From the NCBI GenBank assembly GCA_000381585.1, contig KB906733.1, positions 883,378-947,377 of the forward strand: 64,000 nucleotides of DNA, written 5' to 3'. The notes below the pieces were generated by a model. It did no database searches and had not been told where the DNA came from. It saw only the letters and a program-made list of their open reading frames with translations. This DNA is from Acidobacteriaceae bacterium KBS 83. Its GTDB lineage: Bacteria; Acidobacteriota; Terriglobia; Terriglobales; Acidobacteriaceae. Made by a program: the position numbers and the translations under genes. Shown one piece after another: positions 23,741-33,235 of this stretch. Each line of letters starts with the position of its first letter. Within the stretch, counting starts at the first letter, position 1.

Positions 23741-24625
23741 ATGGGTCTTTCTACTCGACGGCAATTTCTGCAAACGAGCGCGGCGGTTTCGGCCTGCGCT
23801 TTGATGAGTACCCACCCCGTCTTTGGCTTGCCGCTCGGGCTGCCGCTCGGGCTTGAGCTCTACTCGGTGCGCGACATGCTGCCGAAGGATTATGCCGGCA
23901 CCCTCAAGAAGGTGGCGGCGCTTGGCTACCGCGAGGTGGAGGCGGCCGGGTACTACGGGCACTCGGCAGCGGACGTGAAGGCCGCGATGGCGAGCGCGGG
24001 GCTGCGATGCGTCAGCGCGCACTACTCATCGGATCTACTCTCGAAGACGCTCGACGACATCATCGCCTTCCACAAGGTGATGGGCGCGGAGTACATCCTG
24101 TGCTCGTACCCAGGGCACAAGAACCCGCCCGCGAAGGGCGCCGAGCACACCTTCACGCTCGAGGACTGGCACTGGAACGCGGAGCAGTTCAACAAGTGGG
24201 GCGCGAAGGTGAAGGCCGCGGGGTTCCGCTTCGGCTATCACAACCACACGCCGGAGTTTGTGGTGGTGGATGGAGTGACTCCGTATGACGAACTGATGAA
24301 GCTCACCGATCCGGCACTGGTGACGTTCGAGATGGATTGCGGCTGGGTGACGGTCGGAGGCGGTGATCCGGTTGCGTATCTGCACAAGTATCCCAATCGT
24401 ATCTCCATGCTGCACCTGAAGGACTTCAAGAAGGCGGCGAAGCCCTTCTCGCCGACCGCTCCGCCGGTTCCGACGGAACTGGGCCGTGGCTCGATCGATT
24501 ATGGGCCGATCTTCGCGGCGGCGAAGAAAGGCACGATCAAACACTACTTCGTGGAGCAGGAGGCGTTCGACGTTCCGTGGGAAGAGTCGCTCAAGATCGA
24601 CGCGGATTACTTAAGAAAGCTGTGA
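23741..24625 (+). CDS. Tat-exported xylose isomerase-like TIM-barrel protein
   Basis: A 294-residue sugar phosphate isomerase/epimerase-like protein. The N-terminus STRRQFLQTSAAVSACALMSTHPVFG is a Tat signal, so it should act outside the cytoplasm. The barrel (about 35-290) carries GLELYSVRDMLPKDYAGTLKKVAALGYREVE, GAEYILCSYPG, FGYHNHTPEF and FEMDCGWVTVGGGDPVAYL, with Glu/Asp/His metal ligands, and MLHLKDFKK. The substrate is unknown. Start at 23741 sits directly before the Tat motif. Confidence 0.85.
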   Translation: MGLSTRRQFLQTSAAVSACALMSTHPVFGLPLGLPLGLELYSVRDMLPKDYAGTLKKVAALGYREVEAAGYYGHSAADVKAAMASAGLRCVSAHYSSDLLSKTLDDIIAFHKVMGAEYILCSYPGHKNPPAKGAEHTFTLEDWHWNAEQFNKWGAKVKAAGFRFGYHNHTPEFVVVDGVTPYDELMKLTDPALVTFEMDCGWVTVGGGDPVAYLHKYPNRISMLHLKDFKKAAKPFSPTAPPVPTELGRGSIDYGPIFAAAKKGTIKHYFVEQEAFDVPWEESLKIDADYLRKL

Positions 24626-25062
24626 TCGAGTCAAAGGGAAGGCGTATCAGACTGATCCAAGCGGCGGCGCTGCTTATATCGTCGCTGATCGTGATCCTTG
24701 GGCCATTGAGTTACCTAAAGAGCGAACAGTATTCCGGTGCCCTGTTTGTATCGGCATGCTGTTTCTCCCCGGGGCTGATGATTTCGTCGGTCGTTGGCAG
24801 TTCATTTGGTGCTCGTAGCATTCATGATCCAAGCTTCATTCTTGCCGGAGTGTGTAATTTTCTGCTTTATTCAGTCGCGCTGTTCTTTCTCTTGAAGGTC
24901 ACCTTCAAATTTGAAATCGTGAGGCAGTGCAATTGGCGCAAGCAAAGCCCTCATTCGATGAGGGCTTTTGTTTCAAGAAACGACTCAGTTTCGGCGAGCC
25001 GATCAGAACGGGATGTCATCGTCGGTGATGCCGGTGTCGCCGTAGTCCGGGGCGGGCTGTGA
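24622..25062 (+). CDS. Small membrane protein, chimeric 3' end
   Basis: A GTG start overlaps the stop of the preceding gene by four bases (GTGA). The first 100 or so residues contain three hydrophobic helices (LIQAAALLISSLIVILG, ALFVSACCFSPGLMISSVVG, ILAGVCNFLLYSVALFFLL) and look like a real small membrane protein. The frame then reads through a good intrinsic terminator (24944-24968) and into the antisense of a truncated ssb copy, so residues after about 107 are probably not native. The gene is best seen as 3'-truncated or with the true stop lost; no family recognised. Confidence 0.5.
   Translation: MIESKGRRIRLIQAAALLISSLIVILGPLSYLKSEQYSGALFVSACCFSPGLMISSVVGSSFGARSIHDPSFILAGVCNFLLYSVALFFLLKVTFKFEIVRQCNWRKQSPHSMRAFVSRNDSVSASRSERDVIVGDAGVAVVRGGL
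24944..24974 (+). terminator. Intrinsic terminator
   Basis: AAAGCCCTCAT (24944-24954), loop TCG, ATGAGGGCTTT (24958-24968) followed by TTGTTT: an 11-bp perfect stem and U-rich tail. It should end transcription of the glyQ/glyS-isomerase side, yet lies within the open frame of the small membrane protein. Confidence 0.8.
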
Positions 25063-25092
25063 GTAGCCGCCTTGGGTGCTGCCGTGGCTATG
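25003..25092 (-). pseudogene. Truncated second copy of the ssb 3' end
   Basis: Read on the minus strand, these bases encode HSHGSTQGG followed by YSQPAPDYGDTGITDDDIPF and a stop. The last 20 residues are identical to those of the intact ssb at 26250-26699. Only three nucleotide differences occur in those 20 codons and all three are synonymous. An in-frame stop precedes the fragment, and no OB-fold part is present, so it is a 5'-deleted remnant. The similarity begins exactly at the stop codon, not before it, which suggests a decayed paralogous gene rather than an att site. Confidence 0.8.
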
Positions 25093-25324
25093 TCATTTCG
25101 TGGAACACTATGAGCAGAAGTCATCCATGGATGTGTAACATTAGGTCTCTATCGAAGACTCTGCGCGCGGTTTCGGCGATTCAGGAATGACAACTCGCTG
25201 ACTCTGGCGTGACATCGTTTCGCCGCTAAAGCAGTATCGTGTGCTCTAGATAAATACCTGACGGGCTAATGCTATGCCAAGAGTCGCATGGAAAATATTT
25301 TCCGGGGCACGACCTCTGCGTCCA

Positions 25325-26188
25325 ATGGACAGAATGCAAATGACGGCAACAAAAGCAAGACAAGGTCTGCTTTCTTTTATCGCGTTCATCATTATCGCGC
25401 CAGCGCTCTGCGCAACGAACGCCGCTATCCATTCCGGCACGCCAATCGAGCAAGGTTTCAACGACATGTACAACCTCGATTTTTCCGCCGCGCATCGTCA
25501 GTTCGATGCATGGGAAGCCGCACATCCCGATGATCCGATGGGACCCGTCTGCCACGGCGCCGCGTTGCTCTTCGCGGAATTCGACCGGCTCGACGTTCTC
25601 GAGTCTCAGCTCTTCACTGACGATGTCCGATTCGATGATCGTCGCAAGCTGAGTCCCGATCCGCAAACCAAACAGCAGCTCATGGCTGCCCTCGACCGGG
25701 CTGATGCTCTTGCCGACAAGGCGCTGCAACGAAACAGCCAGGACGCCAACGCCCAATTCGCGAAGATATTATCTTTCGGGCTTCGCTCAGACTACGCTGC
25801 GCTCGTCGAGAAGCGTGATCTCGCAGCCCTTCGCTACACTAAGCAGGCAAGGCAATTGGCGGAAGCGCTGCTGAAGCAGAAACCGGATGAGTACGACGCT
25901 TATCTCGCAGTAGGCGTCGAAAATTATTTGTCGGGAATCAAGCCAGCCCCAATACGCTGGCTTCTCTCCGCCGGCGGAGTCCAAACCGACAAGGCGCAGG
26001 GGATTCACGACCTAGAGCTGACCGCGGCCCATGGACACCTGCTAGCTCCGTTCGCCCAATTATTACTCGCCGTATCAGCGCTCCGCGACAAGGACCAGGG
26101 CAAAGCCTGCAGGTTGCTCGCAGGTTTGTCGCAGCGTTACCCGCGCAATGCCCTCTACCGACATGAACTCACCCAGAACCACTGCTGA
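25325..26188 (+). CDS. Secreted TPR-like protein
   Basis: About 287 residues with a signal peptide (LLSFIAFIIIAPALCATNAA). The mature part is helical with repeated Ala-rich pairs (NLDFSAAHRQFDAWEAAHPDDPMG, LADKALQRNSQDANAQFAKI, LAEALLKQKPDEYDAYLAVG, RLLAGLSQRYPRNALYRHE), typical of tetratricopeptide-like solenoids. Such exported proteins are numerous in Acidobacteriota; partner unknown. In-frame starts at 25274, 25325 and 25334 are possible; the latter two give a normal signal peptide. It lies between the truncated and the intact ssb copies. Confidence 0.68.
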   Translation: MDRMQMTATKARQGLLSFIAFIIIAPALCATNAAIHSGTPIEQGFNDMYNLDFSAAHRQFDAWEAAHPDDPMGPVCHGAALLFAEFDRLDVLESQLFTDDVRFDDRRKLSPDPQTKQQLMAALDRADALADKALQRNSQDANAQFAKILSFGLRSDYAALVEKRDLAALRYTKQARQLAEALLKQKPDEYDAYLAVGVENYLSGIKPAPIRWLLSAGGVQTDKAQGIHDLELTAAHGHLLAPFAQLLLAVSALRDKDQGKACRLLAGLSQRYPRNALYRHELTQNHC

Positions 26189-26249
26189 TGCGGCCTGACG
26201 AGGTTGGGAACGGCACGGAAGCTCTGGGTGGCGGCGCAGAGATCCAATT

Positions 26250-26699
26250 TCAGAACGGGATGTCGTCGTCGGTGATGCCGGTGTCGCCGTAGTCGGGGGC
26301 GGGCTGCGAGTAGCTGCCCTGACGGCTGCCGCTGTAGCTGCCGCCGCCACCTTCGCCGTCGCCGCGACCGCCGATCAGGACCAGATCGTTGACGACGACT
26401 TCGGTGCGGTAGACCTTCTTGCCGGTGTCCTTGTCGTCCCAGGAGCGGGTGGTGAGGCGTCCTTCGACGTAGAGCTTGTTGCCCTTCTTGACGTAGTCGC
26501 GGACGATCTCGGCGGTGCGGGCGTAGGCGACGACGTTGTGCCACTCGGTGCGGTCCTGCCACTCGCCGGCCTTGTCCTTGTAGCGGTCGGTGGTGGCGAT
26601 GGAGAAGTTGGCGACCGCCTGGCCGCTGGGGAGGAACTTGATCTCCGGGTCCTTGCCGAGATTGCCGAGCAGGGTGACCTTGTTGATGCTCTTTGCCAT
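26250..26699 (-). CDS. ssb: Single-stranded DNA-binding protein
   Basis: A 149-residue tetrameric SSB for replication, repair and recombination. The OB fold (residues 1-110) has NKVTLLGNLGKDPEIKFLPSG, TEWHNVVAYARTAEIVRDYVKKGNKLYVEGRL and YRTEVVVNDLVLIGG. A Gly/Ser-rich linker leads to the acidic tip DDDIPF that binds partner proteins. A second, truncated copy of its 3' end is at 25003-25092. Confidence 0.96.
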   Translation of the reverse strand: MAKSINKVTLLGNLGKDPEIKFLPSGQAVANFSIATTDRYKDKAGEWQDRTEWHNVVAYARTAEIVRDYVKKGNKLYVEGRLTTRSWDDKDTGKKVYRTEVVVNDLVLIGGRGDGEGGGGSYSGSRQGSYSQPAPDYGDTGITDDDIPF

Positions 26700-27071
26700 G
26701 GTTCTTTTTCTTCCTTCGTTTTGCCTGAACGTCGAGGATAGCAGAGGTCACGTTACCCGCCCCCTCCCCCCTCCCGGTGCCGGAGGCACCCTCGGAAGTG
26801 CTCCAGAATGAGTGGCTTAGGCCCCTTCCCGAGGCCTAAAAATGTCCAAACAAAGGACTTAGCCGTAAAAATGTCTATTCATTGGACTTATGGGAAGGCT
26901 GCCGAGGGTGTTTCAAGAGTGCGAGAGATGCCCCTAATTTCATGGTAGCGAATTGGGTGGATGTATTTGGCAGGTTTTTGCTTTTGATTTGCGAGGCTGA
27001 TTCGATTTGGGAATGCCCTTAGTTTTTCTGGCCAGGGACTCGCCCGGTTCATTTAGGGTGAACGGACGGCC
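26700..27071. other. Intergenic region with hairpins and repeats
   Basis: No gene is seen in these 372 bases. They hold a small hairpin GGTGCC-GGA-GGCACC (26776-26790), a second hairpin TTAGGCC/GGCCTAA (26817-26839, nine-base loop) and immediately after it a tandem 25-bp repeat (26837-26890). The cluster looks like a regulator-binding or mobile-repeat locus between ssb and a membrane protein gene. Confidence 0.7.
26837..26890 (+). repeat. Tandem 25-bp repeat with inverted core
   Basis: Two copies at 26837-26861 and 26866-26890 share TAAAAATGTC at the start and GGACTTA at the end, with eight differing bases between. Each is an imperfect palindrome GTC(C/T)A...GGAC, as expected for a dimeric DNA-binding protein. 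The preceding CTTA at 26816-26819 may be the end of a third, decayed copy. Confidence 0.65.
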
Positions 27072-29971: not shown

Positions 29972-30796
29972 TCAGCGGGACGCGGTTTGCTGCTGGGCGC
30001 TGCCGGGCTGGTGCATGACGGCTTGTGCGGCCTGGTCGAGGGTGGGGCTGCCGGGTTGCTGGGTGAAGCGGGAGCGATCGTCGTCTTCCTGGAAGGAAAT
30101 GCTCTTGAAGAGAAGCGCGTTGCCATCCAGATGAATATGAATCAGAGTGAGCTGCCATAGGGACGGAGCGACCTGCTGCTGCTCGATGGCGAATGAGCCG
30201 CCCTGCTTGAGGCGGCCGAGAAGACCTCCTCCGAATGTGACGTCGTGCATAAGGCTGCCATGGACGCTGCGGATGCGGTGCTGGTGATTGTCCGCGACGA
30301 GAACCCCGGTGGCTGCGGCGAAAACGCGCGCCTCGTGAGTAGGCGGCTTGAAGCTGGGATTGGGCACGAAGTGCAGCGTGGTCTCGTCGGGCGTGGTTTT
30401 GAGGACGGTCCAGATAAAGCCCGCCGGCAGGAGCCGGAGCAGGTCATCCACCTGCTGATAGTCGTGCGCGTTTTCTGTCATCTGCTTCTTCTGCGCGTGC
30501 GGGTCGTGGAGGAATTTCTTGATGAGGGTCAGCTGCTCGGGCTCCGGAAGCCCGCGGCCGTCTTTCACAAGCAAGCGATTCACGTCGCCGTTCGGTGTGG
30601 TCGCGACCCATTGCAGGAGCTGCTCCTTGGATTTGACGGAGTGATCGAGATAGATCCACTGGGAGTGGTCGTTCTTATTCGCTGTGCGCTCGGTATCGAT
30701 GATCTGCTGGATCAACTGCTGCGGTGTTTGCGCGCGCAGGAGCACGGCGGGAAACGCGAGCATGGCGAGTGCGAGGAGTTTTCCGCGGCGAGGCAC
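29972..30796 (-). CDS. Secreted protein of unknown function, paralog 1
   Basis: A 274-residue exported protein with a GTG start and signal peptide (LLALAMLAFPAVLLRAQ). Not recognised. Visible segments: QQIIDTERTANKNDHSQWIYLDHSVK near 30, LLRLLPAGFIWTVLKTTPDETTLHFVPNPSFKPP and FGGGLLGRLKQGGSFAIEQQQVAPSLWQLTLIHIHLDGNALLF. The beta-rich repeat pattern (threonine and hydrophobic alternation) suggests an outer-membrane or lipid-carrier-like fold. It is the same length as its neighbour at 30948-31772 and clearly homologous, a tandem duplication. Confidence 0.78.
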   Translation of the reverse strand: MPRRGKLLALAMLAFPAVLLRAQTPQQLIQQIIDTERTANKNDHSQWIYLDHSVKSKEQLLQWVATTPNGDVNRLLVKDGRGLPEPEQLTLIKKFLHDPHAQKKQMTENAHDYQQVDDLLRLLPAGFIWTVLKTTPDETTLHFVPNPSFKPPTHEARVFAAATGVLVADNHQHRIRSVHGSLMHDVTFGGGLLGRLKQGGSFAIEQQQVAPSLWQLTLIHIHLDGNALLFKSISFQEDDDRSRFTQQPGSPTLDQAAQAVMHQPGSAQQQTASR

Positions 30797-30832
30797 GGAA
30801 TAAGGATGCCGGAGGCAGTGAAAGGAATCAAA

Positions 30833-30850
30833 GATTCGTGATCACGAATC
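30833..30850. promoter_or_regulatory. Perfect 18-bp palindrome between twin genes
   Basis: GATTCGTGA and TCACGAATC are exact reverse complements with no spacer. It lies 37 bases upstream of the GTG start of paralog 1 and 98 bases downstream of the stop of paralog 2 (both minus strand). This is the right position for an operator of paralog 1, but could also act as a terminator for paralog 2. Confidence 0.55.
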
Positions 30851-30947
30851 AGGGGCCAGGGGTCAAGGAAATACATTGGACGACGGAGATTGCAGCGCAC
30901 TGCGCCGGCTGGTGGAGCACGCCGACAGCCGGCCGGAGTGGGGTCAC

Positions 30948-31772
30948 TTACTGCGAGGCGCTTTGCTGCTCGGGGCTGGCAGGCTGCTTCATGACTGCCT
31001 GCGCGGCCTGGTCGAGGGTGGGTCTGGCAGGCTGCCGGGTAAAGAGCGAGCGGTTGTCGTCTTCCTGGAAGTTAAGGCTCTTGAAAAGAAGAACTTTGCC
31101 GTCCAGATGAACGCGAACCAGCGTGAGCTGCCATAGCGAGGGGGCGACCTGCTTCTGCTCGATGGCGAAGGAGCCTCCCTGCTTGATGCGGCCGAGAAGA
31201 CCTCCTCCAAAAGTGACGTCGTGCATCAGCTGCCCGTTGGCGCGACGGATGCGGTGCTGCTGGTTGTCAGCAACCAGATCCCCGGTGGCTGCGGTGAGGA
31301 CGTGTGCCTCACGCGAAGGCGGCTTGAAGCTGGGATTGGGCACGTAATGCAGCGTGGTTTCCTCCGGCGTGGTTTTGACCACGGTCCAGATAAAGCCTTC
31401 GGGCAGGAGACTGAGGATCGTGTCAATCTGCTTCAATTCGTGCGCTTTTGCCTCGACCTGCTTCTTCTGGGCGCGCGTGTCGCCAAGGAATTTCTGGATG
31501 CCGGCCTGCTGCTCGGACTCGGGTTGCTGGCTTCCGTTCTTAACCAGGACGCGTTGGACGTTCCCCTGCGGGGTGGTCGCGGTCCACTGCAGCACCTGCT
31601 CCTTCGGTTTGACGGAGTGATCCAGAAAAATCCACTGGGAGTGATCATCCCGGTTCGCAGCGCGTTCGGCCTCGACGACCTGCTTGATGATCTCCTGCGG
31701 CGTTTGCGCGCGCGCGGCGACGAGCGAGAGCGCGAGGGTAGCGAGTGTGAGGATCTTTCCGCGGCAAAGCAC
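30948..31772 (-). CDS. Secreted protein of unknown function, paralog 2
   Basis: A 274-residue homolog of the gene at 29972-30796 with the same layout: signal peptide (LTLATLALSLVAARAQ), AERAANRDDHSQWIFLDHSVK, LLPEGFIWTVVKTTPEETTLHYVPNPSFKPP, FGGGLLGRIKQGGSFAIEQKQVAPSLWQLTLVRVHLDGKVLLF. The GTG start at 31772 is chosen because it aligns with the GTG of paralog 1 (both before a CXRGK/RRGK segment) and yields exactly equal lengths; an ATG at 31817 would add 15 residues. Probably co-transcribed with the upstream sulfur/redox genes (gap 47 bases). Confidence 0.78.
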   Translation of the reverse strand: MLCRGKILTLATLALSLVAARAQTPQEIIKQVVEAERAANRDDHSQWIFLDHSVKPKEQVLQWTATTPQGNVQRVLVKNGSQQPESEQQAGIQKFLGDTRAQKKQVEAKAHELKQIDTILSLLPEGFIWTVVKTTPEETTLHYVPNPSFKPPSREAHVLTAATGDLVADNQQHRIRRANGQLMHDVTFGGGLLGRIKQGGSFAIEQKQVAPSLWQLTLVRVHLDGKVLLFKSLNFQEDDNRSLFTRQPARPTLDQAAQAVMKQPASPEQQSASQ

Positions 31773-31819
31773 GCCTTGTAGAAGGCGGAGGCGGCGAAAC
31801 GGATCAGAGACTATCATTC

Positions 31820-33235
31820 CTATCGGCTTGCTCCGGCAGCCGGCGCGACGAGGGGCAGCTTCGCCGCCTCCCATGCTGCGAAGCCGCCTGCAATCTCCGC
31901 GACGCAAGGGAATCCGCTTCGTTGCAGCAAACTCGCAGCGACAGACGAGCGATAGCCGCCCGCGCAGTAGACCAGGAGGTCGCGGTCTTTAGGCAGGGAT
32001 TCCAGATGATCCGCGAGACGATTGAGCGGGAGGGACAGGCTGCCCTCGATATGTTTCTGTTCACGCTCATGCGGCGTGCGGACGTCCAGCGCCAGCGGGG
32101 GCTGCTTGGAGGAGAGGCGTTCTGCCGCGGACTGCGCGCTAAGGTGCTCGGTGGAGGCGAGCAGGTCGGGGCGTGAGTCGAGCGCGCGCAATCCATTTTC
32201 GAGATAGCCGGCCACGTGATCGAAGCCGATGCGGCCGAGACGGATGGCGGATTCGTGCTCCCGTCCGGGAGTCGCGATGATGACGATGGGATGGGTGCGA
32301 TCGAGCACGGTACCGGCCCAGGTGGCGTACTGGCCGGCGAGGCCGATGTTGATGCTGCCAACCAGATGGGCGGCGGCGAATTCATCGGGCTCACGGGTGT
32401 CGAGAATTTGTGCGCCATCGGCCTGTATGGCCAGGACGGCGTCGAGCGAGAGCGGCTTCATCTCGCGGGCGAGCGCTTCGTCCAGGGTCGGCCTCTCCTG
32501 GCTGTTGAGCACGGCGTCATAGGTGAAGTATGGCGGAGCTTCCGGCTGATCGGCCGTGACGACGCCGATGAATGCTTCCTTGGTCATGGGCTGCAGGGCG
32601 TAGTTCCAGCGGCGCTGTTCTCCCATGGTGGATACGGTTTCCTTGCTGATGGCCTTGCCGCAGAGCGAGCCGGCGCCGTGAGCGGGATAGACCAGGCTCT
32701 GGTCGGGCAGGGTGAGAAGCTTTTCGTGCAGGGAATCGAAGAGCATGCCGCCCAGGTCCGAAGCCGACCAGCCGAGCGCCACTCGCAGATCGGGGCGGCC
32801 CACGTCGCCGATGAAGAGAGTGTCGCCGGTGAGTACGGCGTAGGGCAGGGTGTCGCTGGCGTCGAGGTCATAGACAACGATGGAGACGGACTCCGGAGTG
32901 TGGCCGGGGGTCTCCAGTGTCTTCAGACGGAGGCGGCCGAACTCCAGAATGTCGCCATCGTGGAGAGGCGTGAATGCGTAGGTGGTTTTCGCGGTGCTGC
33001 CGAGATAGATGGTCGCGCCCGCGCGGTCGCGCAGCTCGAGGTGGCCGGCGACGAAATCGGCGTGCAGGTGCGTGAGGAAGACGTGTTTGATGGTGAGCCC
33101 GTGCTCGGAGGCGAAGGCGACGTACTGCTCGATATCGCGTTGCGGATCGACCACGGCTGCCGTGCCGGTCGCCTCGTCTCCGATGAGGTAGGAGGCGTGC
33201 GCCAAGCACGGCAGATAGAATTGCTTGAAGATCAC
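31820..33235 (-). CDS. Persulfide dioxygenase-like protein with two rhodanese domains
   Basis: A 471-residue fusion. The N-terminal metallo-beta-lactamase fold (about 1-220) has LTHLHADFVAGH and the metal His/Asp set of the glyoxalase II / ETHE1 group. Two rhodanese domains follow (about 260-350 and 365-465). The second has the active-site loop LVYCAGGYRS with a catalytic Cys; the first has VIIATPGREHES and lacks it, so it is probably inactive. This class oxidises glutathione persulfide or moves sulfane sulfur. Overlaps the preceding peroxiredoxin stop region (ATGA), so the two are coupled. Confidence 0.87.
   Translation of the reverse strand: MIFKQFYLPCLAHASYLIGDEATGTAAVVDPQRDIEQYVAFASEHGLTIKHVFLTHLHADFVAGHLELRDRAGATIYLGSTAKTTYAFTPLHDGDILEFGRLRLKTLETPGHTPESVSIVVYDLDASDTLPYAVLTGDTLFIGDVGRPDLRVALGWSASDLGGMLFDSLHEKLLTLPDQSLVYPAHGAGSLCGKAISKETVSTMGEQRRWNYALQPMTKEAFIGVVTADQPEAPPYFTYDAVLNSQERPTLDEALAREMKPLSLDAVLAIQADGAQILDTREPDEFAAAHLVGSINIGLAGQYATWAGTVLDRTHPIVIIATPGREHESAIRLGRIGFDHVAGYLENGLRALDSRPDLLASTEHLSAQSAAERLSSKQPPLALDVRTPHEREQKHIEGSLSLPLNRLADHLESLPKDRDLLVYCAGGYRSSVAASLLQRSGFPCVAEIAGGFAAWEAAKLPLVAPAAGASR

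What the first reader, a model, noticed from the sequence alone, without database searches (positions are those of the whole stretch)
25003..26331. Intact ssb plus a truncated ssb 3' end flanking a foreign-looking gene
The last 20 SSB codons recur about 1.25 kb away in the same orientation with only three differences, all synonymous. This indicates purifying selection before truncation, so a second functional ssb (or a transferred copy) existed. A secreted TPR gene lies between. Homology starts exactly at the stop codon.
Basis: partly seen in the sequence, partly recalled or inferred. Interest (0 to 1): 0.55.

Follow-up and report, generated by a model that had tools for sequence, protein, structure and literature searches.

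The report
Recombination scar beside an ssb gene
A soil bacterium's single-strand-DNA-binding protein gene has a leftover 82-letter tail of a second, slightly different version of itself next door, with a copied gene wedged between them; it is most likely an ordinary trace of DNA exchange between close relatives.

Summary
An intact ssb (26250-26699, minus strand) is followed in the same orientation, 1247 bp away, by an 82-nt copy of its 3' end (25003-25084, 90% identical); a 304-aa gene lies between (25274-26188). Homology stops at the stop codon. All four nucleotide changes peculiar to the remnant are synonymous, and its tail type was seen only in this genus, so the remnant comes from a once-functional, closely related ssb. 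New here: the intervening gene is not clearly foreign. The 1.09-kb segment that carries it has an 89% copy elsewhere in the same genome (contig C11); both copies look selected, and the protein family is common in relatives. The only congener held has isomerase-ORF-ssb with no remnant and no such gene. No tyrosine-integrase gene was found on the same contig. Best reading: an additive recombination event (homology-facilitated illegitimate recombination, or a similar single illegitimate joint) between congeneric alleles brought the gene and left one ssb tail behind. The geometry is that of the E. coli e14/icd scar, without integrating machinery. Seen in no other genome searched, but a known kind of event; interest low.

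The parts
26250..26699 (-). intact ssb, 149 aa, with the genus-type tail GDTGITDDDIPF
   Evidence: Pfam PF00436 8.5e-38; only full-length ssb matched in the genome
26250..26331 (-). 3' end of the intact ssb, right copy of the 82-nt direct repeat
25003..25084 (-). ssb 3' remnant, about 27 codons including the stop, left copy of the repeat
   Evidence: open frame of 29 aa
24944..24968 (.). palindrome AAAGCCCTCATTCGATGAGGGCTTT downstream of the remnant's stop, terminator-like; several other ssb genes of the family have a hairpin at a similar distance
   Evidence: sequence; by-eye comparison with the downstream flanks printed; not on the hit list of the terminator scan
25113..26203 (+). 1.09-kb duplicated segment, 89% identical to own-genome contig C11:32936-34030
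25274..26188 (+). 304-aa, weakly TPR-like protein gene with an N-terminal hydrophobic stretch
   Evidence: paralogue 85% identical on C11; dN/dS 0.28 between the copies
26237..26249 (.). 13 nt after the intact ssb stop codon that still resemble the congener's ssb 3' flank
   Evidence: 10 of 13 match G001, remnant 1 of 13; 8 of 127,974 window positions (both strands) reach 10/13
24577..25062 (+). neighbouring small membrane-protein ORF (X; probable gene from about 24622) whose frame runs through the palindrome and stops inside the ssb remnant

Best explanation
Two diverged alleles of the same ssb gene met in this lineage. One survives complete (26250-26699). Of the other only the last 82 nt remain (25003-25084), cut at an illegitimate joint onto a 1.09-kb segment that carries a weakly TPR-like protein gene. 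The most economical single event is homology-facilitated illegitimate recombination: incoming DNA from a close relative, carrying [TPR-like gene - ssb], recombined by homology in or upstream of ssb and was joined illegitimately inside the last part of the resident ssb. The resident tail, with its own downstream terminator-like palindrome and neighbour X, was left behind as the remnant. A complete ssb was present throughout, so function was not lost. Shown: the repeat, the coding constraint on the remnant, the duplicated segment, and the absence of both in the one congener. Inferred: the single event, its mechanism, and which copy was resident.
For: The remnant's tail type (GDTGITDDDIPF) occurs only in this genus among the 49 ssb loci printed. 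All four remnant-specific changes are synonymous (expectation 0.22-0.28). Synonymous divergence is similar for the two pairs of copies: TPR-like gene dS 0.26, ssb tail dS 0.36 (5 of 17.7 sites, so a wide error), as expected if both came from one donor. Both TPR-like copies look functional (dN/dS 0.28) and 140 of 158 upstream positions match. The intact ssb keeps the congener's 3' flank (10/13) and the remnant does not (1/13), so the two copies had different downstream histories. The congener G001 has isomerase - 144-aa ORF - ssb with neither remnant nor gene. C-terminal-only ssb matches away from contig ends: G000 alone of 61 genomes. In 250 family genomes, 105 gave any match to the ssb tail, and every other match that reaches the last residue lies in an open frame of 155 aa or more. 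No PF00589 tyrosine recombinase on contig C1 among 13 matches in the genome.
Against: Which ssb copy was resident is not settled: the flank result makes the intact copy the orthologue of G001's, which fits an incoming remnant as well as a G001-like donor of the intact copy. The ssb tail is only 81 nt, so dS and the 4-of-4 result rest on few changes. No crossover can be placed along the intact ssb against G001. No donor genome was found. Natural competence of this organism was not tested. Other genes near by also differ from G001 (X, YcxB-like, DoxX-like, GDSL), so several events may be overlaid.
Confidence: 0.5

Rival explanations
1. Old tandem ssb duplication inside this lineage: two paralogous ssb genes diverged under selection, then the TPR-like segment, copied from contig C11, replaced the 5' part of one of them.
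For: Same orientation and adjacency; coding constraint on the remnant; the segment's only close copy is in the same genome.
Against: The congener has one ssb at this locus; its second ssb, on another contig and 68% identical, is far more diverged than the remnant and may belong to the 7% contamination. Needs two events.
Confidence: 0.22
2. Site-specific insertion at the 3' end of ssb by an element that carried a replacement tail, as prophage e14 does at icd; everything but the TPR-like gene has since been lost.
For: Identical geometry: intact gene, insert, displaced 3' end in the same orientation with mostly synonymous differences; e14 leaves a 163-bp icd' (PMC6379469, passages).
Against: The insert is 1,165 bp with no recombinase ORF (by eye); none of 13 PF00589 matches lies on contig C1; no other ssb-tail scar in 61 or 250 genomes, within the limits given there; the C11 copy of the segment has no ssb tail beside it; the intact tail keeps the congener's flank. 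Serine recombinases were not searched.
Confidence: 0.12
3. Insertion into ssb with an 82-bp target-site duplication, after which the outer copy drifted.
For: An insertion flanked by direct repeats is formally what is seen.
Against: An outer copy without function should gain mostly amino-acid changes: 4 of 4 are synonymous. The repeat ends exactly at the stop codon, a coincidence under this reading. 82 bp is very long for a target duplication (recalled).
Confidence: 0.08

Closest known systems
Prophage e14 in icd of E. coli K-12 (icd' scar)
   Same: Intact gene with a complete 3' end, insert, displaced 3' end fragment in the same orientation, few coding changes (PMC6379469, passages)
   Different: Here 82 bp rather than 163 bp, a 1.16-kb insert, no phage genes and no recombinase found
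Homology-facilitated illegitimate recombination (HFIR)
   Same: One homologous and one illegitimate joint can add incoming DNA to the chromosome (PMC3240628, abstract and passages)
   Different: There an observed laboratory reaction in S. pneumoniae, A. baylyi, P. stutzeri and E. coli; here inferred from the scar only
Small-scale gene duplication in Acidobacteria (Ca. Solibacter usitatus)
   Same: Dispersed paralogues without conserved neighbours (PMC3174227, abstract and list of sections)
   Different: That abstract calls most paralogues not recent; this pair is 89% identical in DNA

Membership tests
Bacterial SSB | SSB domain and acidic C-terminal tip ending DDDIPF | tested here: met
   PF00436 8.5e-38; tail read
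e14/icd-type site-specific insertion | Direct repeat of the target gene's 3' end at both ends of the insert | tested here: met
e14/icd-type site-specific insertion | Cognate integrase in or near the insert | tested here: not met
   no PF00589 match on contig C1 among 13 in the genome; serine recombinases not tested
HFIR product | One homologous joint and one joint without extended homology | tested here: inconclusive
   joint at 25084/25085 without extended homology; homologous joint not located
HFIR product | Linear incoming DNA taken up and integrated with RecA | not testable with these tools
   experimental property; not addressed by any search
Transposon insertion with target duplication | Terminal inverted repeats or transposase, short target duplication | tested here: not met
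   no inverted pair of 20 nt or more brackets the insert; no transposase-like ORF noticed in 24.6-26.3 kb (by eye); repeat is 82 nt
TPR protein | TPR repeats above the Pfam cut-off | tested here: not met
   TPR_14 19.8 bits against 23.5; single-sequence model all-helical but mean pLDDT 46

The most novel reading that the evidence does not exclude
A minimal mobile unit that targets the 3' end of ssb, carries a replacement ssb tail and a cargo gene for a helical exported protein, and is moved by a recombinase supplied in trans.
Probability: 0.05. Interest if true: 0.5.

Novelty: new member of a known kind. Interest (0 to 1): 0.2.

Why it matters
It is a well-preserved example of how an essential gene can serve as the homologous foothold for adding a neighbouring gene while a complete copy stays in place. 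The scar records that two functional alleles of ssb, about as far apart as congeners, met in one lineage. It changes no general view.

Tried and rejected
Mobile-unit reading of the segment: the 24940-25290 and 26150-26340 stretches have no third copy in the genome. Plasmid origin: no tblastn match. Viral origin of the gene: none in the viral contigs; viral ssb relatives are at most 54% identical. RNA families (18-34 kb) and tRNAs (whole window): none. X as a clue to the donor: its only strong relative (G272, 42%) is not near ssb on the 2.6 kb read. Conserved context of the TPR-like gene: in the 46 loci compared, none of the neighbour proteins tried was found (most of those loci are only 3-4 kb long). 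Structure: the single-sequence model was too poor to search with. Solved structures: no match. Literature on insertion at ssb 3' ends: no paper held three of the four terms, which is a narrow search.

Full report
What is there. The window lies in a 6.25-Mb genome (contig C1, 883378-947377). Its only congener among the genomes searched is G001, whose ssb contig has the same length (5,754 bp) and gives the same protein matches as JAUTWX010000172.1, 'Acidobacteriaceae bacterium isolate BP_1'. On the minus strand ssb runs 26699-26250. Beyond it come 61 bp, a 304-aa gene on the plus strand (25274-26188), about 190 bp, and a second copy of the last 82 nt of ssb (25084-25003), same orientation, 90% identical. 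The search of the own genome with the ssb protein found these two places only.

Was the remnant ever functional? Compared with the congener's ssb, the nucleotide changes found in the remnant alone are CAG to CAA, TCG to TCA, CCC to CCG and GAC to GAT, all synonymous (polarised by eye from the printed codons). The changes found in the intact copy alone lie in the variable linker and change amino acids; one site is unresolved because all three differ. Without selection 22-28% of changes would be synonymous. The remnant therefore diverged as part of a working ssb and was cut recently relative to that divergence. Its tail type is not seen in the other 47 of the 49 ssb loci printed; the two that have it, L003 and L092, are the same congener contig held twice. 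The donor or sister allele was thus close kin.

What lies between. The 25113-26203 segment has an 89% identical copy at C11:32936-34030 of the same genome. Between the copies dS is 0.26 and dN/dS 0.28, and 140 of 158 upstream positions agree, so both copies appear to be under selection. Relatives of the protein at roughly 40-65% identity are common in the family (58 of 61 genomes have some match, distant paralogues included). By DNA, 69 of 250 family genomes match, the closest outside this genome at 69%. The congener has only a distant paralogue, 30% identical. The gene is therefore lineage-typical and doubled or re-acquired, not evidently foreign.

Synteny. In the congener the order is isomerase, a 144-aa ORF, ssb, a 30796-type gene, a rhodanese-type gene, without the remnant and without the TPR-like gene. 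In the window X, remnant and TPR-like gene stand between isomerase and ssb, and YcxB-like, DoxX-like and GDSL genes stand between ssb and the 30796-type genes. Of the other ssb loci compared, none showed the isomerase or glyS within the stretch held, so the congener is the only informative comparison for gene order. The 13 nt after the stop of the intact ssb match the congener at 10 positions, those of the remnant at 1; 28 other ssb loci match the congener at 0-8.

How it probably arose. Two functional alleles, an illegitimate joint inside one of them, and a gene added between: one additive event such as homology-facilitated illegitimate recombination explains all parts. The similar synonymous distances of the two pairs (0.26; 0.36 on few sites) fit one donor. 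If the segment had simply been copied from C11 into ssb at the time when the two copies diverged, the remnant should have gathered about 5-10 random changes since then (my estimate from the 11% upstream divergence); at most one non-synonymous remnant change is possible. This favours arrival of an already diverged copy. The polarity is open: the flank result makes the intact copy the orthologue of the congener's, while the remnant has the palindrome expected downstream of an ssb and faces the isomerase side. A scan along the intact gene against the congener shows 5-6 synonymous codons per 25 up to codon 125 and 1 in the last 24, too little to place a crossover.

Rivals. The e14/icd scar has the same geometry (PMC6379469, passages), but nothing that could integrate was found: no PF00589 match on C1 (serine recombinases not searched). 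A plain target duplication is disfavoured by the coding constraint and by the boundary at the stop codon. A tandem ssb duplication followed by partial replacement is possible and needs two events.

How common. Of 61 genomes searched with the whole protein, 57 had a match, and C-terminal-only matches away from contig ends occurred in G000 alone; a C-terminal piece in G008 begins at base 2 and one in G046 at base 6 of its contig. With the 33-aa tail, 105 of 250 family genomes matched at E up to 1; all other matches reaching the last residue lie in open frames of 155 aa or more; 145 genomes gave no match and are not informative.

Verdict. Observation confirmed, reading partly right, event ordinary in kind.

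Noticed in passing
window 26746-26990: Dispersed intergenic repeat upstream of ssb with core AAATGTCCAAACAAAGGACTTA: 23 sites with up to 3 mismatches in the genome, 0 for the reversed control; present at the same place in the congener (L063 2004-2256, 76%).
   Followed up: partly
window 24577-25062: ORF X: its only strong relative (G272, L167 1474-1794, 42%) lies just downstream of an ORF with an Rhs core domain (TIGR03696), where an immunity gene would lie; in the window it stands alone and its frame reads through a palindrome into the ssb remnant.
   Followed up: partly
window 29972-31907: Two tandem paralogues (78% identical DNA; no Pfam match for the first); the congener shows one copy in this place.
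   Followed up: no
L062 4928-6567 (contig C11): Two overlapping ORFs beside the second copy of the TPR-like gene look like one broken gene.
   Followed up: no
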